Positions 12,718 through 32,473 of a DNA stretch of 64,000 nt are shown piece after piece; positions within the stretch are counted from its first letter, which is position 1, and each line of letters starts with the position of its first letter. This DNA is from Thermonema rossianum DSM 10300 (GTDB taxonomy: Bacteria > Bacteroidota > Bacteroidia > Cytophagales > Thermonemataceae). The stretch spans positions 62,001 through 126,000 of the forward strand of contig NZ_AUGC01000004.1 of the NCBI RefSeq assembly GCF_000426825.1. Reading direction: 5' to 3'. The notes beneath the pieces are model-generated. The model was not told the DNA's origin and ran no database searches. It was given only the letters and a program-made list of their open reading frames with translations. The position numbers and the translations under genes are program-made.

Positions 12718-14541
12718 ATGCCGAAAGTTTCCAAGTGGTTGAGGAGATGGAGCTTACAACTTCGATGGATGTTTCGCTATTTTTTGCAGTGGCGTTTGCG
12801 GCATATCAGCGACAGGCAGCTGGTTATTGGTGTGAGCGTGCTTTTGGGCTTAGGTGTGGGCTTGGTTGCTTCCTTTCTGTTGTTTACCACACGTTGGATA
12901 AGCAGCCTGTTGGCGGAAACACCTTTCGGCTGGCTCAGTTCGTTGTATTTTATTTTCCCCATTATTGGCATCCTATTGGTGCGCACTTATGTGCGTTTTT
13001 GGTTTCAAGGCAAGTTTCAGAAGGGGATGGCCTATGTGCTCTATGGCATCAGCAAGCGGCAAGGCAATTTTGAAGGCTATCACCGTTATGCCCATGTGTT
13101 GACCAGTGCTGTTACCGTAGGCTTGGGGGGCTCGGCAGGATTGGAAGCCCCCACCGTATTGACGGGAGCAAGCTGGGGAGGCTTCTTTGCTCGCCTGTTT
13201 CGTTTAGACAGCGCCTATCGTGTCATATTGGCGGCTTGTGGGGCAGCTGCCGGTATTGCAGCTGTTTTCGGAACGCCCATAGGCGGTGTGGTGTTTGCAC
13301 TGGAAGTGCTCATGGCCAATGTGCACGCCAATTTTATAGTTCCTTTGCTTATCTCTGCTACCGCCAGTACGCTCATTTCACGCATGCTGGTAGAGCACGA
13401 ACTGCTTACGCCGCGCGAGGGCTTGCCCGCTTTCGATTATGTGCATTTGCCCTTCTTGGTGCTCTTGGGGATTCTGTGTGGCCTGATTGCCGCCTATTTC
13501 ATGTGGATGTCGAAGCAAATGACGCAATGGGAGCTGCGCGAAAAGAAAAACGGGAACCGCCTGTTTTGGGAAGAATTGTTTTTGTTGGGCGCTTTAATTC
13601 TGTTTTTGCCGCCCCTGTATGGTGAGGGCTTCGAGTGGCTCGATGCCATGATTAACCATCATGAAATGGCATATTTGCAGCGCAGTTGGTGGGGGCACTG
13701 GTTGCCGGCCGAGTGGGGCATTGCCCTGCTCATGTTCTTGGTGTTAATGTTGAAACCTTTGGCTACCTGGTTGACCATCTCTTCGGGAGGGAACGGGGGC
13801 GCTTTCGCACCTACGCTGTTTCTGGGAGGAACAACCGGCTATTTGATGGCTTATGTGGCCAACCATGTATTGCATTTTCCTGTGGAGCTGCCCGCCACCA
13901 TGTTTACACTTATTGGCATGGCGGCCACCATGGCGGCGTATTTCCACGCCCCTTTGACAGCCATCTTCATGATAGCCGAGCTGAGTGGGGGCTATCATTA
14001 TTTTGTGCCTTTGATGCTCATCACGGCCATTGCTTATGCTACCAAGGTGATTATTCAACCGGTATCGGCTATTCAGGCAGCAGCGCAAAAAATAGGCGCT
14101 TACTTGCCTGCCGACAAAGACAAAGCCATTTTAAACAACATATCCATCAAGCATGTGCTGGAGCGCGACTGTGTGCCGGTGCCTTATGAAGGCAGCCTGC
14201 GCGACCTGGTCGATGCCATTGCACGAAGCCGGCGCAATATATTCCCCGTAGTAGATAAAGATGGCTATCTGAAAGGCATCATTTTACTGGATGACGTGCG
14301 CAGTATCATCTTTAAGCCGGCACTTTATGATAAGGTAGCCATTGCCGAGCTGGTGCATGCCCCGCCGGCAGTGGTAGATATACACGAGAGCATGGAAGAG
14401 GTGATGGAGAAATTCGACGCTACCGGTGCCTGGAACCTGCCCGTAGTGGACGAAGGGCGCTACCGTGGTTTCTTGTCTAAGTCCAATATTCTTTCCGTGT
14501 ACAGAAAAAGGCTGCGCTGGCAAATAGAGCATTTTGGCTGA
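12718..14541 (+). CDS. ClC-family chloride channel/transporter with two CBS domains
   Basis: A 607-residue inner-membrane protein moving chloride (or another small anion). A basic N-terminus precedes about ten or more membrane segments. Selectivity-filter regions are visible as GGSAGLEAPTVLTG (gating glutamate near residue 144) and SSGGNGGAFAPTLFLGG, with the tyrosine region as GGYHYF. Two CBS domains follow from about residue 475 (HVLERDCVPVPYEGSLRDLV, then FPVVDKDGYLKGII, then WNLPVVDEGRYRGFLS). These often bind adenine nucleotides. The glutamate that carries protons in the E. coli exchanger appears replaced by valine (FALEVLM), so it could be a channel. It is divergent from the GroES-like gene, whose frame would overlap it only if extended. 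Confidence 0.9.
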   Translation: MPKVSKWLRRWSLQLRWMFRYFLQWRLRHISDRQLVIGVSVLLGLGVGLVASFLLFTTRWISSLLAETPFGWLSSLYFIFPIIGILLVRTYVRFWFQGKFQKGMAYVLYGISKRQGNFEGYHRYAHVLTSAVTVGLGGSAGLEAPTVLTGASWGGFFARLFRLDSAYRVILAACGAAAGIAAVFGTPIGGVVFALEVLMANVHANFIVPLLISATASTLISRMLVEHELLTPREGLPAFDYVHLPFLVLLGILCGLIAAYFMWMSKQMTQWELREKKNGNRLFWEELFLLGALILFLPPLYGEGFEWLDAMINHHEMAYLQRSWWGHWLPAEWGIALLMFLVLMLKPLATWLTISSGGNGGAFAPTLFLGGTTGYLMAYVANHVLHFPVELPATMFTLIGMAATMAAYFHAPLTAIFMIAELSGGYHYFVPLMLITAIAYATKVIIQPVSAIQAAAQKIGAYLPADKDKAILNNISIKHVLERDCVPVPYEGSLRDLVDAIARSRRNIFPVVDKDGYLKGIILLDDVRSIIFKPALYDKVAIAELVHAPPAVVDIHESMEEVMEKFDATGAWNLPVVDEGRYRGFLSKSNILSVYRKRLRWQIEHFG

Positions 14542-17169: not shown

Positions 17170-18462
17170 CTACGCTTTATTGCCCGGCTTCTCTTGGCAA
17201 TTGTGTTGCGCAAGAAAACTCTCCAGTTCTTTGTCCAAGGTCTCTATGTCTTTGAGCGTGAGCGTAGGCACGTCTTCTTCATCGCGCTTGCTGCTCATCA
17301 GACCACCCATCATGATCAAGCAACTAATAAGAATCACATACAACAAAATGCTATCGGGAAACTCGGTCCGGTATTGAGCAGGCACCGAAATCACCAGCAT
17401 GATGGTAATGAGCCCACGCGGGGCAAGCCATACCAAGGGAAACAGACTTTTCACCATGCTTACTTTTAAAGTAACGAGCCGTGTCAAATAAATCAATGCC
17501 AGCACACCCAAGCTGATGTAAAGAGCTTGCATGTCGAGCAGCTCACGGATATCGAAAGTGATGCCCAGAACAACAAAGAAGAAAGTACGAACCACAAAGG
17601 CTGTTTCGAGTGTGATGGTGTGCATCTCTTCCAATACGCGGTGCAGTGCCTGTTCATTGAATAGCTTTCTGGCTTTGCCTACTGCCAGCAATTTGTAATT
17701 GCTCAATGCCAAACCAAAGAACAAGATGATGAACAGAGGGGAAAGGTGCATGAGCTTGCCTGCCGAGTAGAGGATGAGCAGAATGGCAATCAGCAAAAAC
17801 AGCTTCACTTTGGTTGTGATTTTTTGAAGCAGCCATACCAGCACAACCGCCAACACAACCGCCAACACAACCGTCAATCCGATATTGGCAGCCACATTTT
17901 TAACAATAGACCAAGCGGAAGATACTTCCGCATTGCCTGTAATGGAGAAGAACAGCACGATGCCGAAAATATCAGAAAAAGTACTTTCATAAATCATGAA
18001 TTCTTGGTTGGATTTCGAAAGCCCCCCGACACTTGGAATAACGATGGCACTACTCATCACCCCCAGCGGCGTGGCATAAAGAACGGCTTGAAACCAGTCG
18101 GGAATGAGTGTGTAATGGAGCAGGGCAGCAATGGCGGCGGTAGTGAGCAGCAAGCCCAACAATGCCGAACTGATGGACTGCAGAATGACCCCTTTCTTTT
18201 CCCGGCTTAACTTCAACTCAAGAGCAGCTTCCAGTACTATCAATATCAAACCTACAATGCCGAGAAGCTCCAGCATAGAAAACCAACTTTTGTCTATCGG
18301 CATCCCTTTCCATATCAATATTTCATGAATGCCAATGCCCAACAGAATGAGCATCAAGACACTCGGGACCCCCGTTTTTTTTGAGATGATATTGAAGAAG
18401 TAAGAGATGACAATGACCAGCGAGGCATAAATAACCAGCAGATAAACATTGATTCCTTCCAT
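17170..18462 (-). CDS. Cation:proton antiporter, CPA/NhaP type
   Basis: A 430-residue polytopic membrane protein from ATG 18462 (a longer frame using TTG at 18507 is less likely). It begins MEGINVYLLVIYASLVIVIS and has about 12 helices. Family features are KTGVPSVLMLILLGIGI, the centre GVMSSAIVIPSVGGLS, and YESTFSDIFGIVLFFS, which carries the acidic pair expected for ion exchange. A short acidic cytoplasmic tail follows (SSKRDEEDVPTLTLKDIETL). It probably swaps Na+ or K+ for H+. Helix six or seven contains a tandem repeat, VVLAVVLAVVL. It is divergent from the SLC12-like gene, which suggests a shared ion or pH role. Confidence 0.85.
   Translation of the reverse strand: MEGINVYLLVIYASLVIVISYFFNIISKKTGVPSVLMLILLGIGIHEILIWKGMPIDKSWFSMLELLGIVGLILIVLEAALELKLSREKKGVILQSISSALLGLLLTTAAIAALLHYTLIPDWFQAVLYATPLGVMSSAIVIPSVGGLSKSNQEFMIYESTFSDIFGIVLFFSITGNAEVSSAWSIVKNVAANIGLTVVLAVVLAVVLVWLLQKITTKVKLFLLIAILLILYSAGKLMHLSPLFIILFFGLALSNYKLLAVGKARKLFNEQALHRVLEEMHTITLETAFVVRTFFFVVLGITFDIRELLDMQALYISLGVLALIYLTRLVTLKVSMVKSLFPLVWLAPRGLITIMLVISVPAQYRTEFPDSILLYVILISCLIMMGGLMSSKRDEEDVPTLTLKDIETLDKELESFLAQHNCQEKPGNKA
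17842..17877. repeat. 12-base tandem repeat inside a membrane helix
   Basis: Three units of CACAACCGCCAA (17842-17853, 17854-17865, 17866-17877; the last has one change). In the antiporter frame they encode repeated VVLA in one transmembrane helix. Length change by slippage would add or remove four residues without a frameshift. Confidence 0.75.
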
Positions 18463-18487
18463 AGATTTAGCTATTTCTGTGTTTGCT

Positions 18488-18508
18488 TTTGGGATAAACC
18501 ATCCCAAA
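18488..18508. promoter_or_regulatory. Inverted repeat upstream of the antiporter
   Basis: TTTGGGAT, loop AAACC, ATCCCAAA: perfect eight-base arms. It ends 26 bases upstream of the antiporter ATG, about where a promoter or operator would be. No T-run follows, so it is not an obvious terminator. Confidence 0.35.
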
Positions 18509-18627: not shown

Positions 18628-21600
18628 ATGAAAGACAAACATAAGTTTGGAACCTTTGGGGGCGTTTTTACCCCTTCCATTCTCACTATTTTAGGCGTAA
18701 TCATGTATTTACGCCTGCCCATGATAGTAGGTACTGCCGGTTTGTGGAGTGCCCTGGGCATCGTACTGGTAGCACACCTTATTTCGCTTACTACCGGTTT
18801 GAGCGTGGCATCCATTGCCACCGATAAAAAAGTGGCTACAGGGGGCACCTACTACATCATTTCGCGTAGCTTGGGCTTGCCCATTGGGGGCACCTTGGGC
18901 TTGGCTTTGTTTGTTGGACTTTCGTTCAGTGTCAGCTTGTATTTGATTGGTTTTGCCGAAAGTTTTTTGAGTTACTGGGGATGGCCCACCGATATCAATA
19001 CCATACGCATCACCGGTACCATCATGTTGATAGCCGTTACGGTGGTGACTTTTATCAGTTCGTCTTTGGCTATCAAGACGCAGTATTTTATCATGGCGGC
19101 TATTTTCCTGTCCTTGATTTCCATTTTCATGGATGGGCACCCCTACAAGCCGGAAGCGCCCAATTTAGAGGGCTTTAAAGACTACAGCTGGATAGTGCTC
19201 TTTGGTATCTTTTTCCCCGCCGTTACGGGCTTTGAGGCGGGCGTGTCCATGTCGGGTGACCTGCGCGACCCCAAGCGCTCTATTCCCGTGGGGACCATCA
19301 TGGCTATAGCCGTAGGACTTTTGGTTTATATTGCTTTGGTCTTCTTCTTTGCTTATACCGTAGATGCCCGTTTGTTGGCAGAAGACCCGCAAGCACTGCT
19401 CAAAATAGCACGTGTGCCTGAGTTGGTAGTAGCCGGCATTTGGGGAGCCACGCTTTCCTCGGCTTTGGGAAGCATTTTGGGGGCACCCCGCATATTACAA
19501 TCTACGGCTATGGATGGCATCACGCCCAAGTTTTTTGCCAAGGGGCATGGCAAAGGCAACGAACCGCGCAATGCTCTTTTGTTGGCATTTGTTATTGCCG
19601 AAGCCGGTATTTTGATTGGTGAGCTTGACGTTATTGCCCGTATCGTATCTACTTTCTTCATTACGACCTATGGCTTTTTGAACCTGAGCGCTGCCTTCGA
19701 GCGCATGACAAGTACCGACTTCCGCCCTTCTTTTAAAGTGCCGGCATGGGTGAGCTGGATAGGGGTGGTGGCTTGCTTGGTAGTGATGATTCAGCTCGAC
19801 ATCATGGCGACGGTAGGCGGCATCCTTATTTTGGGCGCTGTGTATTTGTTCCTGAAGCGCCGTCAGTTAGAGCTTAAAACAGGCGATACCTGGGGGAGTG
19901 TGTGGGCTTCGTTGGTAAAGCGGGGAATGGCGGCTTTGTCGAAAGAAAAAAACATAGTGCGCAACTGGCGCCCCAATGTGTTGTTGTTTGCAGGAAAACA
20001 AGCCGAACGCCCCTTGCTTTTTTCATTGGGCCTGGAGCTCACCGAGATGGGAACACTCTTTGCCTTTGAGATGATGCCCGGCAGCAAAGAAGAACTGGCT
20101 ACGCGCAAAACACGGGAGCTCATAGAAAGAGATGACCGCAAGCTTTTCCTTTATAAATACGACACCCCCAACATATTTAAAGGTATTGAGGAAGTAGCGC
20201 GGGTATATGGCGCACCGGGTATCGAGCCCAATACGGTCATGCTGGGGTGGTCGAAACAACCATCGCATCGGGCTGCCTATTTGGACCTGCTGCGTCATCT
20301 GCTTCGTTATGATTATAACTTGTTGCTGCTGAATGCCTATTCCGGCAAGGGCACAGACGAAAAGCAGAGCGATGAGCGCCCACAAGTAGATGTTTGGGTG
20401 CCGGTGCGCGGGCGCGAAATTCTTTATTTCATCTTGCTGATGCGCCATTTAACCGCCAACTGGCGTTGGAAAGATGCCCATTTGCGCTTTTTGACTTTGG
20501 TCGATGAGCCTACCGACGTGGAGGTGGCTTACCGTCAGCTGGCACTGCTCTCGGAAGAGTACCGTCTGGATTTTGAAATAAAAGTGATTTACAGAGGTAA
20601 TCGTGGCAAATCAGACGAAGAACTGTGGGTGCAAGAGTCCACTGCCAAAGACTTGGTGCTGATGCCTTTGCCACCCTTGAATCAACTACAAAGCGATGAA
20701 GAATACGCGCGCTATAGCCGTTTGGCTGACTTGCTCAAAGCACCTGTGTTGTTAGGAACTGCTTCTTCGCAGTTCGAAGAAGCGCAACTGCTGCCCGTGC
20801 CTGTTCAAACAGACCTTGGTGAAGAGGCCGGTCAGATATATGATTGGGTGCTGCCCGAAGAACCGCTCTCTGCCATGCCGGAGGTACAGCAACGATTGCG
20901 CAGCATGGAGCAGGTCTATGGCTCAATGAACCGCCTGCTTTTTGAGCGCATCATTGAACCGATACTGCTCGACTACCAAAACGGTTTGGAAGAGATAGCC
21001 CGTCATATCGATTGGATTAGCAAAGAAAGTGAAAAAGCCCATGCTTTGCCGGAAGCCAAGCGGCAGCGCTTCTGCTGGAAGCTGCGCAATCAGTATTTGT
21101 TCCGTCAGGAACAGTTTGTGGAACAGTTTGTGGAGCAGCATCTCGACTTGCAGCAGCAGCGGCTCGAAGCAGCTACCGAGTGGTACATGAAAGAGTTGCA
21201 AGACCTGATTCTGGGTGTCCCCAAAGAGTGGAAACTGACATACCCCAAAGAAAAGTTGCTTGTTGCCGAGTCAGACACGGCGCCGGTGCGGCGTCTGAAG
21301 CGCCGTTTGCGTTGGTGGGCAGCCATTACTGGCAAAAAAGCAGTAACCTACACAGTAGATTTCCGTGAAGTGGCGCGCCATTTTCTTTATCAACAACGCA
21401 TTGCCTTCTTTAATGTCCTGCTCGAAAGCCTTCAGTATGACCTGCTCAGCTGGCTTAAGCAGTATCGCAACATGAACGCCATGCTCAATGAAACTCTGCT
21501 GGACATAGAGGCCGGCAACAATGACTGGAAAGGGGACTTGGAAGCCGTAAGTGCCGAAACCGAAAAACTGAAGAAGCGCTTGTTGCAACTGCGTCCTTTG

Positions 21601-23724
21601 TATTACCGCCGCGCAGCGTGGGAGTTGCGCAAGGCTTTGAAAAACATGGGACGCCATATAGAGGAAATAGGGGGAGATAAAAAAGTAATCAGAACGGCCC
21701 GCCGTTTCGAAAAACGACTCGAAGAATACATCGAAAACATTGCACAATACCCCAAGGAATACACCGAAAGCGCCAAGCTTACCCTGAGTGCCAACCTGGT
21801 GGATTTACACTTGCAATTGGTCAAGGTGCGCGTGCAGGAAAAGACGCTTAACTTTTACAAAAAAGAGCGGCAGCATATAGAGAACCACACCCAAAAAACC
21901 ATAGAGCGAATATTGCAATGGATGCGCCAAGAGAAGAGCAAGGAAGAGTTATTGCCTGCTTTGCAAAAAGAAGCCGCACAGCTGCAGGTAGAAGAATGGA
22001 CGCAAGCCTTTGAAATTGTAGGACAATCGTTCTACGAGCTTTGTGCGGACTTGCCCGAAGAGGTGGAAATGGCCGGTGAGTTCCACATACGTCCCCAAGA
22101 CATGATTGTGGAAGTCGAATCTTTGGAGCTGCCCTTGCGGCGCCTGGCTACCCACTTCCTGGCATCCAAGCTGTCTTCGGTAGTAGAAGAGTTCCTTAAA
22201 GAAGTGAGCGCCGAAGTAATGAACGCTACCTATGCCTTACGCAGTACGCTGAGCCTTTTGCGCTTCAATGTGGAGAATATAGATGCAGCCGGTGAAGAGG
22301 AGGCGCAGGCACAATACAAAGCCCTGCTGCATGAAGCGGCACTACAGGTAGAAAAAATTCAAACCGACTTAAGCACCTATTTGCAATCTGCCTATGAAAA
22401 GCTCAATCATATTTTGCATGAGCACTTCGAGCCTTTGAGTGCCCACCGCATCGTGCGCACCCACCAAGAGTTCGCACAGCTCTACCGCTTGTATCAAGGT
22501 AAAAAAATGCTCAGCAAGACCGGGCGCTGGCTGGAGCAGGTCAAAGATACCCTGCGCAAGTTGCTCGAAAAAGTGGTCTATTCGCAGAGTCGTGTGCTGC
22601 TGGCCACCCAAAAACAAGAACAGATAACAGCCCACACCACCACCAACCAACTGGCTGACTGGGTCGAGCAGTTGACGCCGCGCCCGCAAGTAGGCAAGCA
22701 ACTTTCGGCTTATTACCACAATTTATTTTCCGGGCAATCGAACATAGGCGATGATTTCTGGATTCCGCGTCCTCATGAAGAAGCGGCCTTGCAAAAAGCC
22801 GTGCTTCGCTTCAAAGCCGGCAATAAAGGACTGGTGTTTGTGGTAGGGCATCGCGACAGCGGGAAAACAGCCATCTGCCGGCGCATCGTGCAAAATTACT
22901 TTTCACAAGAAACGGTATTTCATGTTTTTGCTTCCAACGAAGAATGCGGCTGTATAGAAGGATTTACCAAGGCGCTGGCCCGTGCTACGGGCTTGGGCGG
23001 CGACCTGGTGTCGATGCTCGAAGCCCTGCCGTGGGGGAGTGCCTGTATCATCAACGACATAGAGCAATGGTGGCAAGAAGCCCCCGAAGCAGCCGCCGAA
23101 TGGGAACAACTGATTCATACGCTTTATGCATATAGCCACCGTTGCCTGTTTGTGCTGAATACCAACCCCTACGCTTTCCGTTTGATGAACCACGCCGAAA
23201 GCATGAGCCGTTGTGCCTTGGCTGTGCTTCAAATGCAGCCCTATACCGCCCAAGAGCTGCAGGAGCTGGTCATGCGGCGTCATCGCACCACCGGTTACCG
23301 CATTGTATGGAGCGGAAGAGAAGAGCGGCGTTTGAGCGGTTGGCGTTTGGCGCAGCTTTTCAATAAGTATTTCCTGTATTCGGCAGGCAACCCCGGCATC
23401 ACGCTCAACGCATGGATTGCGCATATAGATAAGGTGCAGGAGAAAGAGCTGCACATAAGAGCCCCGCAGGTGCCTTCCATCACCGTGCTCGATAAAATGC
23501 CGCCCTTATGGAAAGCCATTCTATGGAAAGTGCTTCAGCACAAGCAGCTTAGCAAAAATGCCCTGTTGACATACTTCCCGCAAGAGCGCCGGGAAGAGTG
23601 CCTGCAGGCGTTGGAAGCTTTGCTCAGAACGGGCGTGTTGGTGTCGCGTGGTTTGGATACCTACGCTATAAGCATTTACGTTGTGCGTTTTGTAATTCAA
23701 ATATTTGAAAAAGAAGAACTATGA
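18628..23724 (+). CDS. SLC12-like cation-chloride cotransporter fused to a long helical region and an AAA-like ATPase
   Basis: A 1698-residue protein. Residues 1-430 form an amino-acid-permease fold of the SLC12 (Na-K-Cl / K-Cl) type, starting FGTFGGVFTPSILTILGVIM and containing GGTYYIISRSLG and GSILGAPRILQSTAMDG. About 445-740 match the cytoplasmic SLC12 tail (NWRPNVLLFAGKQAERP, then PQVDVWVP and LRFLTLVDEP). About 745-1390 are almost wholly charged helices, probably coiled coil. About 1395-1610 form a P-loop ATPase: Walker A GHRDSGKT (near 1405-1412), Walker B CIINDIE (near 1476) and sensor-like LFVLNTN (near 1508). The last 70 residues look like a winged helix. Ordinary SLC12 proteins end near residue 750-1100 and have no ATPase. 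The stop overlaps the next ATG. Confidence 0.85.
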   Translation: MKDKHKFGTFGGVFTPSILTILGVIMYLRLPMIVGTAGLWSALGIVLVAHLISLTTGLSVASIATDKKVATGGTYYIISRSLGLPIGGTLGLALFVGLSFSVSLYLIGFAESFLSYWGWPTDINTIRITGTIMLIAVTVVTFISSSLAIKTQYFIMAAIFLSLISIFMDGHPYKPEAPNLEGFKDYSWIVLFGIFFPAVTGFEAGVSMSGDLRDPKRSIPVGTIMAIAVGLLVYIALVFFFAYTVDARLLAEDPQALLKIARVPELVVAGIWGATLSSALGSILGAPRILQSTAMDGITPKFFAKGHGKGNEPRNALLLAFVIAEAGILIGELDVIARIVSTFFITTYGFLNLSAAFERMTSTDFRPSFKVPAWVSWIGVVACLVVMIQLDIMATVGGILILGAVYLFLKRRQLELKTGDTWGSVWASLVKRGMAALSKEKNIVRNWRPNVLLFAGKQAERPLLFSLGLELTEMGTLFAFEMMPGSKEELATRKTRELIERDDRKLFLYKYDTPNIFKGIEEVARVYGAPGIEPNTVMLGWSKQPSHRAAYLDLLRHLLRYDYNLLLLNAYSGKGTDEKQSDERPQVDVWVPVRGREILYFILLMRHLTANWRWKDAHLRFLTLVDEPTDVEVAYRQLALLSEEYRLDFEIKVIYRGNRGKSDEELWVQESTAKDLVLMPLPPLNQLQSDEEYARYSRLADLLKAPVLLGTASSQFEEAQLLPVPVQTDLGEEAGQIYDWVLPEEPLSAMPEVQQRLRSMEQVYGSMNRLLFERIIEPILLDYQNGLEEIARHIDWISKESEKAHALPEAKRQRFCWKLRNQYLFRQEQFVEQFVEQHLDLQQQRLEAATEWYMKELQDLILGVPKEWKLTYPKEKLLVAESDTAPVRRLKRRLRWWAAITGKKAVTYTVDFREVARHFLYQQRIAFFNVLLESLQYDLLSWLKQYRNMNAMLNETLLDIEAGNNDWKGDLEAVSAETEKLKKRLLQLRPLYYRRAAWELRKALKNMGRHIEEIGGDKKVIRTARRFEKRLEEYIENIAQYPKEYTESAKLTLSANLVDLHLQLVKVRVQEKTLNFYKKERQHIENHTQKTIERILQWMRQEKSKEELLPALQKEAAQLQVEEWTQAFEIVGQSFYELCADLPEEVEMAGEFHIRPQDMIVEVESLELPLRRLATHFLASKLSSVVEEFLKEVSAEVMNATYALRSTLSLLRFNVENIDAAGEEEAQAQYKALLHEAALQVEKIQTDLSTYLQSAYEKLNHILHEHFEPLSAHRIVRTHQEFAQLYRLYQGKKMLSKTGRWLEQVKDTLRKLLEKVVYSQSRVLLATQKQEQITAHTTTNQLADWVEQLTPRPQVGKQLSAYYHNLFSGQSNIGDDFWIPRPHEEAALQKAVLRFKAGNKGLVFVVGHRDSGKTAICRRIVQNYFSQETVFHVFASNEECGCIEGFTKALARATGLGGDLVSMLEALPWGSACIINDIEQWWQEAPEAAAEWEQLIHTLYAYSHRCLFVLNTNPYAFRLMNHAESMSRCALAVLQMQPYTAQELQELVMRRHRTTGYRIVWSGREERRLSGWRLAQLFNKYFLYSAGNPGITLNAWIAHIDKVQEKELHIRAPQVPSITVLDKMPPLWKAILWKVLQHKQLSKNALLTYFPQERREECLQALEALLRTGVLVSRGLDTYAISIYVVRFVIQIFEKEEL

Positions 23725-24434
23725 AACTACTCTTGTCGGTCATTGCTCTTTTGTTTGTTTGGTTGTCGCTTCGTTTTTTACGGTTGCGCTATGTGTCTGC
23801 TTTTACAAGAGGATGGAAATACTACCTGAATCCCTTCTTGCTGATAACCGAAGGCTTGCTGGGCACAATAAGCGGTTGGTTGCTCATTGGGTTGCTTTTC
23901 AAAGACAACTACTATGCAGGCATACTGCGCTCGGCCTATGTACTTTTGTTGCTCGTGCTGTTTGCCTGGTTATACGGAAAAGACCTGTTGGCAGGCTTTA
24001 TTCTGCGTTTGGAGGGAAAGCTAAAGCAGGGAGGTTATATCCGTGTGGGCAACATAGAAGGTGAGCTTGTCAAGCAGCAGACAGGAGCTATTTATGTGCG
24101 CGACGCGCAGGGGTGGATACATAAAATCCCCTGCTCTAAATTGTTATTGGGCGGGCTTGGCTGGAAAGAAGAGAACACCATACATGGAAGCTACGTAACA
24201 CTGACCCTTCCACTGCTTACGCCACAAACGCCCCAAGAAAAAGAGCGCCTGTCCCGGCTTGTGGGGGACTATCTGATGCAATCGCCTTGGGTAAAGACGC
24301 ACCGGCACCATACTATGGAGTGGCAAAACGGTCGCCTGCAGTTGCGTGTAGCACTCATCGACAAAGAAGCGCACGAGTTTGTGCGTGAAGAGCTCATGCA
24401 TCTTTTGCAGCAGTTTCACCATGGCAACAAATAA
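23721..24434 (+). CDS. MscS-like small membrane protein
   Basis: A 237-residue protein whose ATG overlaps the stop of the SLC12-ATPase gene by four bases (ATGA), so it is translationally coupled to it. Three or four hydrophobic helices fill residues 1-95. They are followed by a beta domain with KQGGYIRVGNIEGELVKQQ and GWIHKIPCSKLLLGG, which resembles the MscS pore-adjacent beta domain (pattern GDxIxVGxxEGxV...IPNSxL). The C-terminal alpha/beta part (TLPLLTPQ through LLQQFHH) also fits that fold. It could be a tension- or volume-gated channel, or a regulatory subunit of the transporter. The usual asparagine of IPNS is a cysteine. Homology is moderate, so the call is cautious. Confidence 0.65.
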   Translation: MKLLLSVIALLFVWLSLRFLRLRYVSAFTRGWKYYLNPFLLITEGLLGTISGWLLIGLLFKDNYYAGILRSAYVLLLLVLFAWLYGKDLLAGFILRLEGKLKQGGYIRVGNIEGELVKQQTGAIYVRDAQGWIHKIPCSKLLLGGLGWKEENTIHGSYVTLTLPLLTPQTPQEKERLSRLVGDYLMQSPWVKTHRHHTMEWQNGRLQLRVALIDKEAHEFVREELMHLLQQFHHGNK

Positions 24435-24509: not shown

Positions 24510-26144
24510 TTACGGTATCAAACGCAGCAGCGTGTTTACACTGTCTTGGGCTATGTCAAACAGAAATGCAGGATAAACACCCCAAAGTATGCTTAAAACC
24601 ACACAAATACCAAGCAGCACCGTTTCCCGCCCCCGAAGGTCAGTCAAGCGCTCATGATACGCCGGCTCTGAAAGCCAGTATTCACCCATAAACATGCGAC
24701 GCAAGCACCACAGGAAATAAGCAGCGCTAAGCACAATACCCAGGGCTGCCCCGGCTACCCAGCCATTGTGTACCCACTCCGAGCGGAAGCTGCCCAACAA
24801 GGTAAACACTTCCCCCACAAACGCTGAAAACAAAGGCAAGCCCAAAGAAGCAAACATAAGCAGGAACGCAAACACACTAAAACGCGGCATGCGGTGCCAT
24901 AAGCCGCTGTAATGACTGATGTGGCGGTCGTGCGTACGGTCATACAGCACCCCCACCAATAAAAACAAGCCTGCCGACAGCACCCCGTGGCTCATCATTT
25001 GAAAAATTGCCCCTTGCAAGCCTTCTTCGGTCATCGACACGGCGCCCAGCAGCACATAGCCCATATGCGAAACCGAAGCATAGGCTATCATTTTCTTCAG
25101 ATCATCCATCGCCAGGGCATTCATGGCGCCATATAAGATGGACAACACAGCCATGAACGCCAACACCTCGCTATGTGCCTGCCACAAGTCAGCAAACATG
25201 GGAATAACAAAACGAAACAGACCATAGCCCCCCACTTTAAGCAATATGCCCGCCAGTATCACCGAAATGGGCGTGGGCGCTTCTACGTGGGCATCGGGCA
25301 GCCATGTGTGGAAAGGCACGGCGGGCAGCTTAATCAAAAAGCCTGTTACCAACAACCAGAAAGCCCACCAGCGGAAATCATGACCGGCAAACAACACACT
25401 GCCGGGTATGTAGCTTTCTTGCATGGCCAGCAAATCCATATCAAAACGGTGCACCACCCATTCGGGCTGTGTTTGAATGAGCTTTTGCACTTCGGGCAGC
25501 AGGGCAGGGGTGTAGTCCTCTATCGAAGCAATAATACCTGCTTCCAGGGCAGTAGCTGCCGGGTCGAAGGTAGAAACCAGGCCGGCAATAAATACAATGA
25601 GAATAAACAAAGAACCTACCAGCGTGTAAATAAAAAACTTGAGCGCTGCGTACTCGCGCCTTTCGCCCCCCCAAAGCCCTATCAGAAAATACATGGGCAA
25701 CAACATGAATTCAAAAAAGACATAAAACACCAGGTAGTCGCGCACAACAAAACACGCCGGCACACTCAGCATCAGCAAAGCAAAGAGCGCATAATATCCC
25801 TTGCTCTTTTCTTTGATATTCCATGAGGCAATGGCTGCCAACAAAAAAACAACGCTTGTAAGCAGCAGCATGCTTAAGCCAAGCCCGTCGAGCCCCACAT
25901 GGTAGTCTGCCCGGATGGTGCCCCAGTCACCGGCCGGAATACGAAACCATTCGTACTGCTCTTCGAAGGATAAGCTGCCGGCAGCACCGGCTTGGGGAAA
26001 GCGGGCATACAAAAAGAGCGTAATGGCCAATTGGGCTATGACACCTGCCAGCACCAGCAAGCGCTGCGTGTGGTAATGCCGGCGGCCGGTGGTTCCCAGT
26101 AAAACAAGCAAACACAAGGGAATGAGTAGAAGTACCGTGAGCAT
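24510..26144 (-). CDS. nuoM: NADH-quinone oxidoreductase subunit M (NuoM)
   Basis: A 544-residue antiporter-like membrane subunit of complex I with 14 helices. Family landmarks are HVGLDGLGLSMLLLTS and the proton-pathway glutamate in VFFEFMLLPMYFLIGLWGG. The lysine helix is GFLIKLPAVPFHTWLPDAH, followed by VEAPTPISVILAGILLK and DDLKKMIAYASVSHMGYV. These favour NuoM over NuoL, MrpD or HyfB. No other nuo gene is in the window: upstream lies the divergent act operon and downstream a convergent gene with a terminator. So this copy is isolated, either a scattered complex I gene or an extra copy with another partner. Confidence 0.9.
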   Translation of the reverse strand: MLTVLLLIPLCLLVLLGTTGRRHYHTQRLLVLAGVIAQLAITLFLYARFPQAGAAGSLSFEEQYEWFRIPAGDWGTIRADYHVGLDGLGLSMLLLTSVVFLLAAIASWNIKEKSKGYYALFALLMLSVPACFVVRDYLVFYVFFEFMLLPMYFLIGLWGGERREYAALKFFIYTLVGSLFILIVFIAGLVSTFDPAATALEAGIIASIEDYTPALLPEVQKLIQTQPEWVVHRFDMDLLAMQESYIPGSVLFAGHDFRWWAFWLLVTGFLIKLPAVPFHTWLPDAHVEAPTPISVILAGILLKVGGYGLFRFVIPMFADLWQAHSEVLAFMAVLSILYGAMNALAMDDLKKMIAYASVSHMGYVLLGAVSMTEEGLQGAIFQMMSHGVLSAGLFLLVGVLYDRTHDRHISHYSGLWHRMPRFSVFAFLLMFASLGLPLFSAFVGEVFTLLGSFRSEWVHNGWVAGAALGIVLSAAYFLWCLRRMFMGEYWLSEPAYHERLTDLRGRETVLLGICVVLSILWGVYPAFLFDIAQDSVNTLLRLIP

Positions 26145-26217
26145 AAGGAATCGATGGTTTCAGTTGGGCGATATGCAAAAATCAAAAAAAGCCTGCTTAC
26201 GCACAATTTTATTTTAT

Positions 26218-26239
26218 GTTATTACCGTGTTATTACCGT
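26218..26239. repeat. Tandem 11-base direct repeat between nuoM and the act operon
   Basis: GTTATTACCGT occurs twice with no gap (26218-26228 and 26229-26239). Eleven bases is close to one helical turn, so a protein could bind both copies on the same DNA face. It lies 74 bases upstream of the nuoM ATG and about 180 bases upstream of the act promoter. The rest of 26145-26396 is A+T-rich and without a gene. Confidence 0.5.
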
Positions 26240-26353
26240 GCCGCAAGCCTTTGGGCAAGCGCTGAAAGGGGCAAAGAAGGGCTTGTTATTTAGAAAGAAT
26301 CTAAATATTGGAAAAGTTTCATATATAAGCTTTTGATTTATTGAAAATTACTT

Positions 26354-26377
26354 AAAAAAAAACGAGCTTAGAGCTCG
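26354..26377 (-). terminator. Minus-strand hairpin with T-run, no gene in front of it
   Basis: On the minus strand CGAGCT, loop CTA, AGCTCG, then nine T (arms 26363-26368 and 26372-26377). It has terminator form, but the next gene in front of it on that strand is the start region of the act operon, transcribed the other way. It could be an attenuator in a long nuoM leader or the end of an antisense RNA. Confidence 0.45.
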
Positions 26378-26396
26378 ATTTGCCTCGCAAAGGGCA

Positions 26397-26427
26397 TTTG
26401 TGAATAAGAAAAGCCATATTAACTTTG
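26397..26427 (+). promoter_or_regulatory. Consensus Bacteroidota promoter of the act operon
   Basis: TTTG at 26397-26400, 19 bases, then TAACTTTG at 26420-26427: both elements and the spacing fit the phylum consensus. Transcription should begin near 26432. This favours an actA start downstream, at 26478 or 26508. Confidence 0.75.
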
Positions 26428-26477
26428 CGAAGATGAAAAATCAGGTGAAACCAACGTTAACTCATAAGCAAAAGGCT

Positions 26478-27773
26478 ATGCGCTTACTGAACAAACCCAA
26501 CAGGCTGATGCTCACACGCATCTGTTACGCAAGCATCTTTTTGATAGTGATGCTTTTTTCAAGTCCCGCTTGGGCGCAAGAGGTTGCCCCGCAGGACAAC
26601 GCCACGCAAGAAGTGCCCGGCTTGGATATGAGCGAGGCAACGATTGCCAAAGGGAAAGAACTCTTTGTTGGTCGTTGTCAATCGTGCCACGCCGTCACCG
26701 ATGAAGTGGTGATTGGTCCCGGCTTAAAGGGCGTTTTGGAACGTCGCGAACTGCCCTGGTTGCTTAAGTGGATTCGCAACTCGCAGGCTTTGATCCAGAG
26801 TGGCGACCCCACGGCCGTACAGCTCTACAACGAGTACAACCAAACCCAGATGACCTCCTTCCTGGACCTCAGCGACGACGACATCAAGGCTATTTTGGCT
26901 TATGTGAAGTCGGCTGAAAACCAACAACAGGAAGCAGCTGCCGATGGTGCTGCCCAAGCCGAAGGGGGAGAAGCTGCCCAGGCAAGCGGTCTCAACTCTT
27001 CTTACCTGACTGCCATTTTGGTAGGCTTGGTGATTGTGCTGGTGTTGGTGTTGGCTGTATTGTTGCTGATAGTATCGCTGTTGACCCGCTTCTTGAAAAA
27101 CCAGGACCTGCCCGAAGAAGACTTGGAGGTAGTCAATGAAAAAATAGACTTGACCGCCCCCTTCCGCAGCAAAGCATTCCTTACTGTAGTGGGCGTGTTT
27201 TTCTTGTTGGTGGTGGCCAAGGCAGGCATCGACAGCCTGATGGATGTAGGTGTGCAAACAGGCTATGCACCTACTCAGCCCATTGCCTTCTCACATAAAC
27301 TGCATGCCGGCAAGTATCAAATCGATTGCCAGTACTGCCATACAGGCGTGCGCAAAGGCAAATCTGCCAATATTCCTTCTGCCAATATATGTATGAACTG
27401 CCACGGCGAAATCAAACGCGGCTCGCCTGAAATACAAAAAATCTATGCTGCCATAGAAAAGAACGAGCCTATCAAGTGGGTGCGTGTACACAACCTGCAA
27501 GACTTCGTGTATTTCAACCACGCACAACACGTGCAGGTAGGACAAATCGAATGTCAGCACTGCCACGGCGAAATCGAGAAGATGGAAGTGGTGCAGCAGC
27601 GCTCGCCCTTGACCATGGGCTGGTGTATCGACTGCCACCGCAAAACCGTGGTGAAGGCAGAGGGCAACGATTACTATGACCGCCTGCTGCAATTCCACAA
27701 AGCCAATGCAGGCAAAAAGCCCATGACCGTAGAAGACATTGGCGGTCTTGAGTGCTCTAAGTGTCACTATTAA
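26478..27773 (+). CDS. actA: Alternative complex III subunit ActA, multiheme cytochrome c
   Basis: Electron-transfer subunit of alternative complex III, which oxidises menaquinol and feeds a terminal oxidase. The start at 26478 gives 431 residues and a signal peptide or anchor ending SPAWAQ. ATG at 26433 (446 residues) would coincide with the predicted transcript start, and 26508 is also possible. Six CxxCH heme sites are visible: CQSCH in an N-terminal monoheme-like domain, then CQYCH, CMNCH, CQHCH, CIDCH and CSKCH in the C-terminal multiheme domain. Two membrane helices lie between them. The described Rhodothermus ActA has five hemes, so the N-terminal domain adds one. First gene of the operon. 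Confidence 0.9.
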   Translation: MRLLNKPNRLMLTRICYASIFLIVMLFSSPAWAQEVAPQDNATQEVPGLDMSEATIAKGKELFVGRCQSCHAVTDEVVIGPGLKGVLERRELPWLLKWIRNSQALIQSGDPTAVQLYNEYNQTQMTSFLDLSDDDIKAILAYVKSAENQQQEAAADGAAQAEGGEAAQASGLNSSYLTAILVGLVIVLVLVLAVLLLIVSLLTRFLKNQDLPEEDLEVVNEKIDLTAPFRSKAFLTVVGVFFLLVVAKAGIDSLMDVGVQTGYAPTQPIAFSHKLHAGKYQIDCQYCHTGVRKGKSANIPSANICMNCHGEIKRGSPEIQKIYAAIEKNEPIKWVRVHNLQDFVYFNHAQHVQVGQIECQHCHGEIEKMEVVQQRSPLTMGWCIDCHRKTVVKAEGNDYYDRLLQFHKANAGKKPMTVEDIGGLECSKCHY

Positions 27774-27814
27774 TCTTCTTTCTTCAAATCAAGTCTTCAT
27801 AACTCAACAGAAAT

Positions 27815-30943
<3,129 letters not shown>

Positions 30944-30961
30944 CCTAAACTTAGAATAACC

Positions 30962-32473
30962 ATGCAGGTAACTTCGCCAATTCGTGAACCGTTGGTAACC
31001 GGTCACAAAACCATGCACGATATCACCGAGGACATTTGTCGTCGGGTAGAAGAGAAACCTTCTAAAGCATGGTTGGCTGCCTTCGGTGTGTCGCTGATTA
31101 TGCTTATAGTAGGCGGCTATGCTGCTGCCGCCACTTGGTGGTATGGTATCGGTATGTGGGGCTTGAACAAAACCGTCGGATGGGCTTGGGACATCACCAA
31201 CTTCGTCTGGTGGGTAGGTATTGGTCACGCCGGTACGTTGATTTCCGCCATTTTGCTTCTGTTCCGTCAGAAATGGAGAACATCAATTAACCGTGCTGCC
31301 GAAGCCATGACTATCTTCGCCGTTATTTGTGCCGGTACTTTCATCTTGATGCACATGGGGCGTACATGGCTGGCACACTGGGCGCTTCCCTTGCCCAACA
31401 CCTATGGTTCGTTGTGGGTGAACTTCCACTCACCACTGGTGTGGGACGTGTTCGCCATCTCTACTTACTTGACCGTGTCGCTGGTGTTCTGGTATGTGGG
31501 CTTGATTCCTGACTTGGCTACCATCCGCGACCGTGCCAAGCTGACCCTGGAGAAATATCCTCTTCTGGATACCGACACACCCGAAGAGCGTCGTGAAAAA
31601 CGCAAAAAACGCCGCCCCATCGCTGCCTTCATCTATGGTTTGTTGGCTTTCGGCTGGGAAGGCGGTGCCAAGGTGTGGGCGCGCTACGAATATGTAGCTT
31701 TGATTCTGGCTGGACTTTCTACACCGCTGGTACTTTCTGTACACACCATCGTGAGTTTCGACTTTGCCACTTCGCTCATCCCCGGATGGCATACGACCAT
31801 CTTCCCGCCTTACTTCGTTGCGGGGGCTATCTTCTCGGGCTTTGCCATGGTGCAAACCCTCATGCTCATTACCCGCAAAGTGTATAAGCTCGAAGATTAT
31901 ATTACCATCACCCACATCGATTACATGAACAAGATTATCATCTTGACTGGTTCTATTGTGGGTATTGCTTATATTACCGAGTTCTTCATGGCTTGGTATT
32001 CGGGTGTGGAATATGAGCGCTATGCTTTCTTGAACCGTGCTTTTGGTCCTTACTGGTGGGCTTACTGGTCTATGATGACCTGCAACGTGATTTCACCGCA
32101 GCTGTTCTGGTTCAAGAAAATACGTCAAAGCATCGCTTGGTCTTTCTTCCTGTCTATCGTGGTGAACATCGGTATGTGGTTCGAGCGTTTCGTGATTATC
32201 GTTACTTCGCTGCACCGCGACTTCATCCCCTCGAGCTGGGCGATGTTCTATCCCACACTTTACGACATAGGTGACTACCTCTTCACTTTTGGCATCTTCT
32301 TTACTTGCTTCTTCTTGTTTGCCAAATATTTGCCGGTTATCAACATGGCAGAAGTGAAGACCATCTTGAACTCTTCGGATATCAAAGCCAAAGAGAAGGC
32401 TACCGAATATCTCAAAGAAGGTGGTGCTGTGAAAGCTGCTTCACCTATGTACGATAAAGGGAAAGACTTATAA
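30962..32473 (+). CDS. actC: Alternative complex III subunit ActC, NrfD/PsrC-like quinol-binding protein
   Basis: A 503-residue integral membrane protein of the NrfD family with about ten helices ([60 protein letters not shown]). Members carry the quinol site and possibly proton paths of alternative complex III. It lies 18 bases after actB and 11 before actD. Sister subunit ActF has the same fold. Confidence 0.93.

What the first reader, a model, noticed from the sequence alone, without database searches (positions are those of the whole stretch)
18628..24434. SLC12 cotransporter fused to a helical arm and AAA-like ATPase, coupled to an MscS-like gene
One uninterrupted 1698-residue frame carries a cation-chloride cotransporter, its normal cytoplasmic tail, about 650 residues of charged helices, a P-loop ATPase with Walker A (GHRDSGKT), Walker B (CIINDIE) and a sensor-like asparagine, and a winged-helix end. 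The following MscS-like gene overlaps by ATGA. I know of no described SLC12 protein with an ATPase, and the pairing with a mechanosensitive-type protein suggests a single volume or ion control device in which the ATPase senses nucleotide or drives remodelling.
Basis: partly seen in the sequence, partly recalled or inferred. Interest (0 to 1): 0.82.

Follow-up and report, generated by a model that had tools for sequence, protein, structure and literature searches.

The report
Ion transporter wired to ATPase switch
A bacterial salt transporter related to human kidney and nerve chloride cotransporters is built in one piece with a long arm and an ATP-binding switch, and is usually encoded beside a small relative of a pressure-release channel, which suggests an undescribed device that ties ion traffic to the cell's energy state.

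Summary
ORF 18628-23724 is one frame of 1698 aa: SLC12-type cotransporter, helical arm, divergent AAA+ ATPase near ORC/Cdc6 and TnsC, winged helix. It overlaps an MscS-family gene by ATGA. It is no local accident: the fusion recurs in 80 mapped rows (75 distinct ATPase sequences), mostly Bacteroidota but also records labelled Ignavibacteria, Calditrichota, Myxococcota and Gemmatimonadetes, with an MscS-like gene directly downstream in 74 of 80. The ATPase belongs to a family found in 75 of 395 genomes sampled from the phylum, mostly without a transporter, beside an MscS-family gene in 89 of 96 mapped loci (81 without eight that Pfam does not confirm). In another lineage it is fused to a Na+/H+-antiporter-type transporter. 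Eight loci have a short ATPase frame with no room for the arm; in two the MscS partner has shrunk to its cytosolic C-terminal domain. Best reading: a nucleotide-binding switch paired with MscS-family proteins and, in two lineages, fused to an ion transporter. Contact, ATP hydrolysis and flux control are inferred. 'Mechanosensitive' is doubtful for the fused form: its pore helix is bulky. Nine paper searches found no description.

The parts
18628..23724 (+). SLC12-arm-ATPase fusion, 1698 aa
   Evidence: homologous full-length frames
18628..20757 (+). SLC12/CCC transporter with C-terminal cytoplasmic domain (aa 1-710); K+-site residues Y105, P197, T200 and Na+-site residues A274, S277, S278 kept in alignment
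   Evidence: site residues mostly recalled
20758..22635 (+). helical arm (about aa 711-1336), main helices of 46-73 residues, small beta elements
   Evidence: aa 1292-1335 poorly predicted
22639..23481 (+). AAA+ P-loop core (about aa 1338-1618)
22846..22869 (+). Walker A GHRDSGKT, aa 1407-1414; Lys in 59 of 60 aligned fused rows
23044..23064 (+). Walker B CIINDIE, aa 1473-1479; D1477 in 60 of 60, E1479 in 59 of 60
23158..23166 (+). sensor-1-like N1511 and N1513
   Evidence: Asn in 57 and 54 of 60
23278..23280 (+). invariant R1551
   Evidence: 60 of 60
23482..23721 (+). winged-helix end (about aa 1619-1698), inferred from the alignment to ORC2
   Evidence: model, ORC2 aligned to the last residue of the model
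23721..24434 (+). MscS-family partner, 237 aa, start overlaps the stop of the fusion (ATGA)
17170..18507 (-). Na+/H+-exchanger-type (PF00999) antiporter gene, divergent, 120 nt before the fusion's start
   Evidence: like gene adjacent in relatives

Best explanation
A membrane ion-homeostasis device run by a nucleotide-binding switch. The C-terminal AAA+/ORC-like domain binds ATP and changes state with nucleotide; the long helical arm carries that change to the fused SLC12 transporter (predicted Na+, K+ and Cl- uptake) and to the MscS-family partner made from the next, overlapping gene. The partner's cytosolic C-terminal domain is the likely docking point. In the soluble form the same kind of ATPase sits beside a canonical MscS-type channel; fusion to SLC12 (and, elsewhere, to an antiporter-type transporter) put a transporter under the same switch. 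Shown: architecture, conservation, homology of the arm-ATPase chain between forms, gene pairing. Inferred: complex formation, nucleotide dependence, direction of control.
For: Pairing: MscS-family gene on the same strand within 500 nt in 89 of 96 and 74 of 80 loci; the window's genome has 7 MscS genes in 2.95 Mb, two of them beside its two ATPases of this family. Arm-ATPase homologous along most of its length: SLC12-fused against soluble (841 columns) and against antiporter-fused (946 columns), both hhalign probability 100. Two transporter types, SLC12 and PF00999, on opposite sides of the ATPase tree. Nucleotide site strongly kept in fused forms: Lys 59, Asp 60, Glu 59 of 60. Reductions: in L089 no arm is found but ATPase and MscS stay together; in L192 and L200 the partner keeps only its C-terminal domain (HMM E 3.5e-12 and 4.3e-8). 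Partner type follows ATPase type: median length 237 aa beside SLC12-fused (74 rows), 323.5 aa beside soluble ATPases with MscS downstream (62 rows), 232 aa in the antiporter operon (8 rows) (lengths from the first Met). Fused SLC12 domains form one group apart from unfused ones of the order (75 against 13 rows, support 100).
Against: No direct evidence of binding, ATP use or ion flux. No arginine is conserved in the stretch where an AAA+ finger usually sits, so ring-type hydrolysis is doubtful. Over all forms Walker A Lys is replaced in 27 of 176 rows, among them all 12 loci with MscS upstream, and the Walker B Asp column differs in 68, so hydrolysis cannot be essential everywhere. L100, L186, L191 and L223 are fused with no partner directly downstream (L186 has an MscS-like frame divergent upstream). 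All loci were found through the ATPase, and five of the seven MscS genes of the window's genome stand without one, so MscS does not need it.
Confidence: 0.55

Rival explanations
1. The MscS-like partner of the fused form is no channel but an assembly and docking scaffold: it oligomerises in the membrane and holds SLC12-ATPase chains together by its cytosolic domain; the only ion path is SLC12.
For: Pore helix carries W/F/Y where the canonical MscS of the same genome has small residues; in L192 and L200 only the cytosolic C-terminal domain is left; in L098 a 185-aa and in L163 a 202-aa membrane protein without PF00924 match fills the slot.
Against: Of 54 partners scanned, 53 match PF00924 at E up to 1, and the modelled one keeps three TM helices and the beta-domain; soluble-type examples keep canonical MscS proteins.
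Confidence: 0.25
2. AAA+ remodeller: the ATPase assembles, extracts or inactivates the transporter and the MscS oligomer rather than switching them by bound nucleotide.
For: Fold matches include AAA+ machines (Hsp104/ClpB, NSF, RFC).
Against: Best matches are ORC/Cdc6; no conserved arginine in the usual finger stretch.
Confidence: 0.1
3. Neighbours by shared osmotic regulation only: SLC12-ATPase and MscS-like protein are co-expressed but do not touch.
For: Co-transcription alone would give the overlap; an antiporter and a ClC-type gene lie nearby too.
Against: Pairing persists with ATPases that have no transporter; partner length class follows ATPase class.
Confidence: 0.07
4. Cell-suicide or anti-phage system in which the ATPase senses an intruder and opens the MscS protein.
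For: STAND NTPases often act so (recalled); weak nSTAND1/nSTAND3 matches in L092, L093, L094 and L089; weak PADLOC mad8 match in L092, E 6.1e-6.
Against: PADLOC gives the window protein only mad8 at E 0.0015 and its partner nothing; housekeeping neighbours in the window.
Confidence: 0.03

Closest known systems
SLC12 cation-chloride cotransporters (NKCC1, KCC1-4, Methanosarcina CCC)
   Same: TM domain, C-terminal domain, K+ and Na+ site residues in alignment. Human KCC1 binds ATP/ADP in its C-terminal domain and NKCC1 is stabilised by adenine nucleotides (PMC8280820, passages seen).
   Different: About 1000 extra residues with a P-loop ATPase; MscS-family partner gene.
MscS family (MscS, YnaI, YbiO, MSL1)
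   Same: Three TM helices, beta-domain, alpha/beta C-terminal domain; 46 of the 50 Foldseek rows shown carry MscS-family titles, the other four are titled only 'membrane protein'.
   Different: Bulky pore helix in the fused-form partner; ATPase neighbour.
ORC/Cdc6, TnsC and STAND-like AAA+ ATPases
   Same: Walker A and B, sensor-1 Asn, winged-helix region; A. pernix ORC2 Z 16.1, rmsd 5.3, 323 residues.
   Different: No Pfam NTPase model over its cut-off in the window protein; no conserved arginine in the usual finger stretch; joined to a helical arm and a transporter.
K-ATP channel (Kir6/SUR) and Ktr/Trk with KtrA (recalled, not tested)
   Same: Works like: a nucleotide-binding regulator sets an ion path.
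   Different: Regulators of other folds (ABC, RCK), as recalled.

Membership tests
SLC12 / cation-chloride cotransporter | APC-fold TM domain above family cut-off | tested here: met
   PF00324 159.9 bits, cut-off 24.6
SLC12 / cation-chloride cotransporter | CCC C-terminal cytoplasmic domain | tested here: met
   KCC alignments to aa 655-659
SLC12 / cation-chloride cotransporter | K+-site Tyr/Pro/Thr and NKCC-type Na+-site Ala/Ser/Ser | tested here: met
   Y105, P197, T200 against KCC1; A274, S277, S278 against NKCC1. KCC1 Tyr216 role seen in a PMC9784483 passage; the other site residues recalled
NCBIfam TIGR00930 (K-Cl cotransporter) | curated score cut-off 953.4 bits | tested here: not met
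   370.5 bits; so not filed as a K-Cl cotransporter
SLC12 / cation-chloride cotransporter | electroneutral Cl--coupled transport | not testable with these tools
   -
MscS family | MscS beta-domain above cut-off | tested here: met
   PF00924 30.4 bits, cut-off 20.2
MscS family | MscS fold | tested here: met
   7onl E 5.8e-11, prob 1.00; whole-chain TM-scores only about 0.4
MscS mechanosensitive channel | small-residue (Gly/Ala) pore helix (recalled criterion) | tested here: not met
   by eye over 54 rows: W/F/Y-rich; so filed as MscS-family protein, not as a channel
MscS mechanosensitive channel | tension-gated conductance | not testable with these tools
   -
AAA+ near ORC/Cdc6, TnsC and STAND | Walker A, Walker B, sensor 1, winged helix | tested here: met
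AAA+ (classical ring ATPase) | arginine finger | tested here: not met
   no Arg in 60% or more of 60 rows between sensor 1 and R1551; sequence test only
Pfam AAA_16 / AAA_22 | gathering score | tested here: not met
   23.9 of 32.6 bits and 16.9 of 27; one relative, L092, passes AAA_22 (32.5 of 27)
Known anti-phage system | PADLOC model match | tested here: not met
   window protein: only mad8 at E 0.0015 over the P-loop; L092: mad8 at 6.1e-6, mad3 at 0.0038

The most novel reading that the evidence does not exclude
The ATPase is a gate-keeper subunit of MscS-family proteins: it binds their cytosolic cage and opens or shuts it by ATP/ADP state, perhaps as a ring of matching symmetry (MscS is heptameric, recalled; titles of TnsC entries among the fold matches name heptamers). 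In the fused form the same switch sets Na-K-Cl uptake and vents ions through the partner, making one energy-gated uptake-and-release valve, a prokaryotic analogue of volume regulation by SLC12 proteins.
Probability: 0.15. Interest if true: 0.95.

Novelty: categorically new. Interest (0 to 1): 0.84.

Why it matters
Each part belongs to a known family, but no described system known to me puts an ORC-like AAA+ switch beside an MscS-family protein or on a cation-chloride cotransporter. The ATPase is common (75 of 395 sampled genomes of the phylum), so a widespread layer of bacterial ion control may be unrecognised. It also bears on an open question about the human relatives: KCC1 binds ATP/ADP, and its authors ask whether SLC12 C-terminal domains can hydrolyse ATP (PMC8280820, passages seen). 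A bacterial CCC with a built-in ATPase makes nucleotide control of a CCC directly testable.

Tried and rejected
Frame error or chimaeric assembly: rejected, the same fusion occurs in many independent assemblies. SLC12 as the root of the pairing: rejected as the general rule, since most ATPase-MscS pairs carry no transporter (first set). Control: of 14 unfused SLC12 loci (flanks of about 1.5 kb or less) none holds the ATPase and one (L015) has an MscS-like frame beside it. Defence system: no support. A weak OSR1_C match in one soluble-type MscS protein is not among the 25 of 57 families shown for the fused-form partners and was not pursued. Papers: nine answered searches showed nothing on an SLC12-ATPase fusion or an ATPase-MscS pair; the library is open-access only and I saw listings, so this is weak evidence of absence. 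Papers opened: PMC4301019, PMC9784483 and PMC8280820, passages only.

Limits of the counts. The 96 loci are all matches; the 80 are the best 80 of 136. The sets overlap: L102/L204, L105/L182, L106/L184, L108/L209, L084/L225 and L036/L201 have equal contig lengths. My MscS profile was built iteratively from these loci. Pfam was tried on ten partners (eight match PF00924 at E up to 0.01; L043 and L098 do not), on 54 (53 match at E up to 1) and on eight more (five over the cut-off, L044 below it, L097 and L163 none). So the partners in the antiporter operon (L097, L109, L123, L172-L176; L043 and L044 are of this type) count as MscS only by my profile; a profile comparison supports six of the L043 type (hhalign 96.9%, E 1.5e-10, 125 columns). 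Without these eight loci the count is 81 of 96. Alignment A5 holds 54 of 57 partners picked (L222, L235, L254 left out); in L205, L206, L218 and L232 picked none by its length and ATG filter. The tree used the quick method and a midpoint root; the window row has a long branch (1.37), so its place is unsure; 17 rows were labelled unknown by hand, mostly contig ends. In one search one unfused row was too short (L016), and L193 and L205, split over two frames, were labelled fused by hand. L095 (no TM helix) was counted among frames of 1400 aa or more without SLC12; its frame is probably too long at the 5' end.
Full report
WHAT IS THERE. The ORF 18628-23724 is open for 1698 codons. Residues 13-418 match PF00324 (E 1.1e-46), and the protein scores 370.5 bits with TIGR00930, K-Cl cotransporter, under that model's cut-off of 953.4. 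PDB matches to KCC1 run to residue 659, so the CCC cytoplasmic domain is there. In alignment Y105, P197 and T200 sit at the KCC1 K+ site, and A274, S277 and S278 at the NKCC1 Na+ site, where KCC1 has Ser, Gly and Ala; which residues form the sites is mostly recalled. This favours Na+-coupled, NKCC-like transport, by inference. The next gene starts within the stop codon (ATGA) and encodes a 237-aa MscS-family protein: PF00924 30.4 bits against 20.2; three TM helices, beta-domain and alpha/beta domain in the model, pLDDT 89; Foldseek matches are MscS, YbiO, YnaI, MSL1 and their like.

THE ATPASE. Residues 687-1698 were modelled from 60 fused homologues (mean pLDDT 84.4, pTM 0.54): an arm of helices up to 73 residues long, a poorly predicted linker (aa 1292-1335), then an AAA+ core and a winged-helix region. 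The core is nearest A. pernix ORC2 (Z 16.1, 323 residues, rmsd 5.3), with ORC1, Cdc6 and TnsC close behind. In those 60 rows Walker A Lys is kept in 59, Walker B Asp in 60, Glu in 59, sensor Asn in 57; no arginine is conserved in the usual finger stretch, but R1551 is invariant. Over 176 domains of all forms Walker A Lys is replaced in 27, of which three rows are SLC12-fused (L107, L108, L209) and 12 are the loci with MscS upstream.

HOW WIDE IT IS. In 390 genomes of the order 18, the window's included, match the arm-ATPase; in 395 of the phylum 75 match the ATPase profile. The one other genome held of the same genus (G001) has no match, and one of seven genus and family relatives (G002) has one, so the system is patchy. 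A scan of GTDB species genomes found 136 loci and kept the best 80: mostly Bacteroidota, among them Flexithrix dorotheae, Mangrovivirga halotolerans and Marinigracilibium pacificum, with records labelled Ignavibacteria, Calditrichota, Gemmatimonadetes, Proteobacteria and Myxococcota (Enhygromyxa, Plesiocystis). The window's order is probably Cytophagales: G179 of that order has the contig length of the Flexithrix record (551189; inference, Flexithrix's order recalled).

THE GENE PAIR. I mapped genes round the ATPase in all 96 loci and in the 80 named loci and counted. Same-strand MscS-family gene within 500 nt: 89 of 96 (77 downstream, 12 upstream) and 74 of 80 (all downstream). SLC12-fused only: 11 of 13 and 63 of 67. 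Eight of the 89 (the antiporter-operon type) rest on my own profile, not on Pfam; six partners of that type are tied to the fused-form partners by profile comparison at 96.9%. Of the seven exceptions in the first set, L165, L166 and L167 have the ATPase frame running to a contig end, L101 has an MscS-like gene 784 nt downstream behind one other gene (PF00924 33.6 bits), L098 and L163 have a shorter membrane protein in the slot, and L100 has none. In the second set L192 and L200 have a 132- and a 114-aa frame matching only the partner's C-terminal domain; in L186, L191, L223 and L255 none was seen downstream. By contrast the window's genome carries 7 MscS genes in 2.95 Mb, about one per 420 kb, and two of the 7 lie beside its two ATPases of this family (the second: L083, a 984-aa soluble ATPase directly followed by a 338-aa canonical MscS).

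FORMS. (1) Soluble arm-ATPase plus MscS: most of the 75 frames of the first set that are shorter than 1400 aa and have no SLC12 (some of these are cut by contig ends). (2) Short ATPase frames of 440-466 aa plus MscS in eight loci; only L089 was inspected, and no arm gene stands upstream. (3) Antiporter-type transporter fused: PF00999 in L091, L092, L113 and L121; L093 and L162 align with L092 over the whole length at 30% identity and, like L094, have many hydrophobic helices, but L093 and L094 gave no Pfam transporter match and L162 was not scanned. (4) SLC12 fused. (5) A three-gene run of ATPase, MscS-like or shortened slot protein, and antiporter in 10 loci. The ATPase tree splits deeply: forms 1-3 on one side, SLC12-fused, form 5 and one soluble row (L111) on the other (support 100, midpoint root). 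Profile comparison finds the arm-ATPase chain homologous between forms: 841 columns (SLC12-fused to soluble), 946 (SLC12-fused to antiporter-fused) and 891 (soluble to antiporter-fused), all probability 100. Fused and unfused SLC12 domains fall into two groups (75 and 13 rows, support 100), which agrees with one origin of the SLC12 fusion; the unfused rows come from the order only.

HOW IT MOST LIKELY WORKS. The loci were found by the ATPase, so its presence is given. What stays beside it most often is an MscS-family protein, while the arm, the transporter and, in two loci, the partner's membrane part can each be absent. So the likely contact is between the ATPase (or arm) and the partner's C-terminal domain, and the likely function is control of an ion path by nucleotide state. 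With SLC12 fused, the transporter is the controlled element and the partner a regulator, vent or scaffold. Retention of the Walker residues in fused forms argues for nucleotide binding; the missing finger and the lost Lys elsewhere argue for a switch more than for a motor, and in the lineages with MscS upstream even nucleotide binding is doubtful. Direction of control and trigger are unknown. An antiporter gene is divergent and adjacent in 22 of 80 SLC12-fused rows, the window among them, and a ClC-type gene lies two genes beyond the antiporter, in keeping with Na+/K+/Cl- balance.

NOVELTY. Families of the parts are known; the assembly is not described in anything I could find (nine searches of an open-access library, listed under Tried and rejected). 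Human KCC1 binds ATP/ADP in its C-terminal domain (PMC8280820, passages seen), so nucleotide control of CCCs is a live question that this protein poses in an explicit form.

Noticed in passing
L083 6470-10443 (own genome, contig C4): Second ATPase of this family in the same genome, soluble, directly followed by a canonical MscS gene.
   Followed up: yes
window 12718-14541: ClC-type chloride channel/exchanger gene (best NCBIfam match PRK01862, below its cut-off), two genes upstream of the antiporter.
   Followed up: no
L015 765-3540: An unfused SLC12 gene overlapped by an MscS-like frame; part of the stretch is masked and was left alone.
   Followed up: no
L193 and L205: SLC12 and ATPase parts in two overlapping frames: natural split or sequencing error; not resolved.
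   Followed up: no
L095, L096, L116-L120, L164, L168-L171: Loci with the MscS gene upstream of the ATPase; all 12 have another residue in place of the Walker A Lys.
   Followed up: partly
L180 1224-4160: A 979-aa ATPase frame without SLC12, directly beside the divergent antiporter, as if the SLC12 part had been lost.
   Followed up: no
L045 2631-3605: Weak OSR1_C (SPAK/OSR1 docking domain) match at the C-terminus of a canonical MscS partner, below cut-off.
   Followed up: partly
window 24510-32473: NuoM-like gene on the minus strand, then genes with QrcA/B/C/D-like matches below their cut-offs, looking like an alternative complex III operon (the last name recalled).
   Followed up: no
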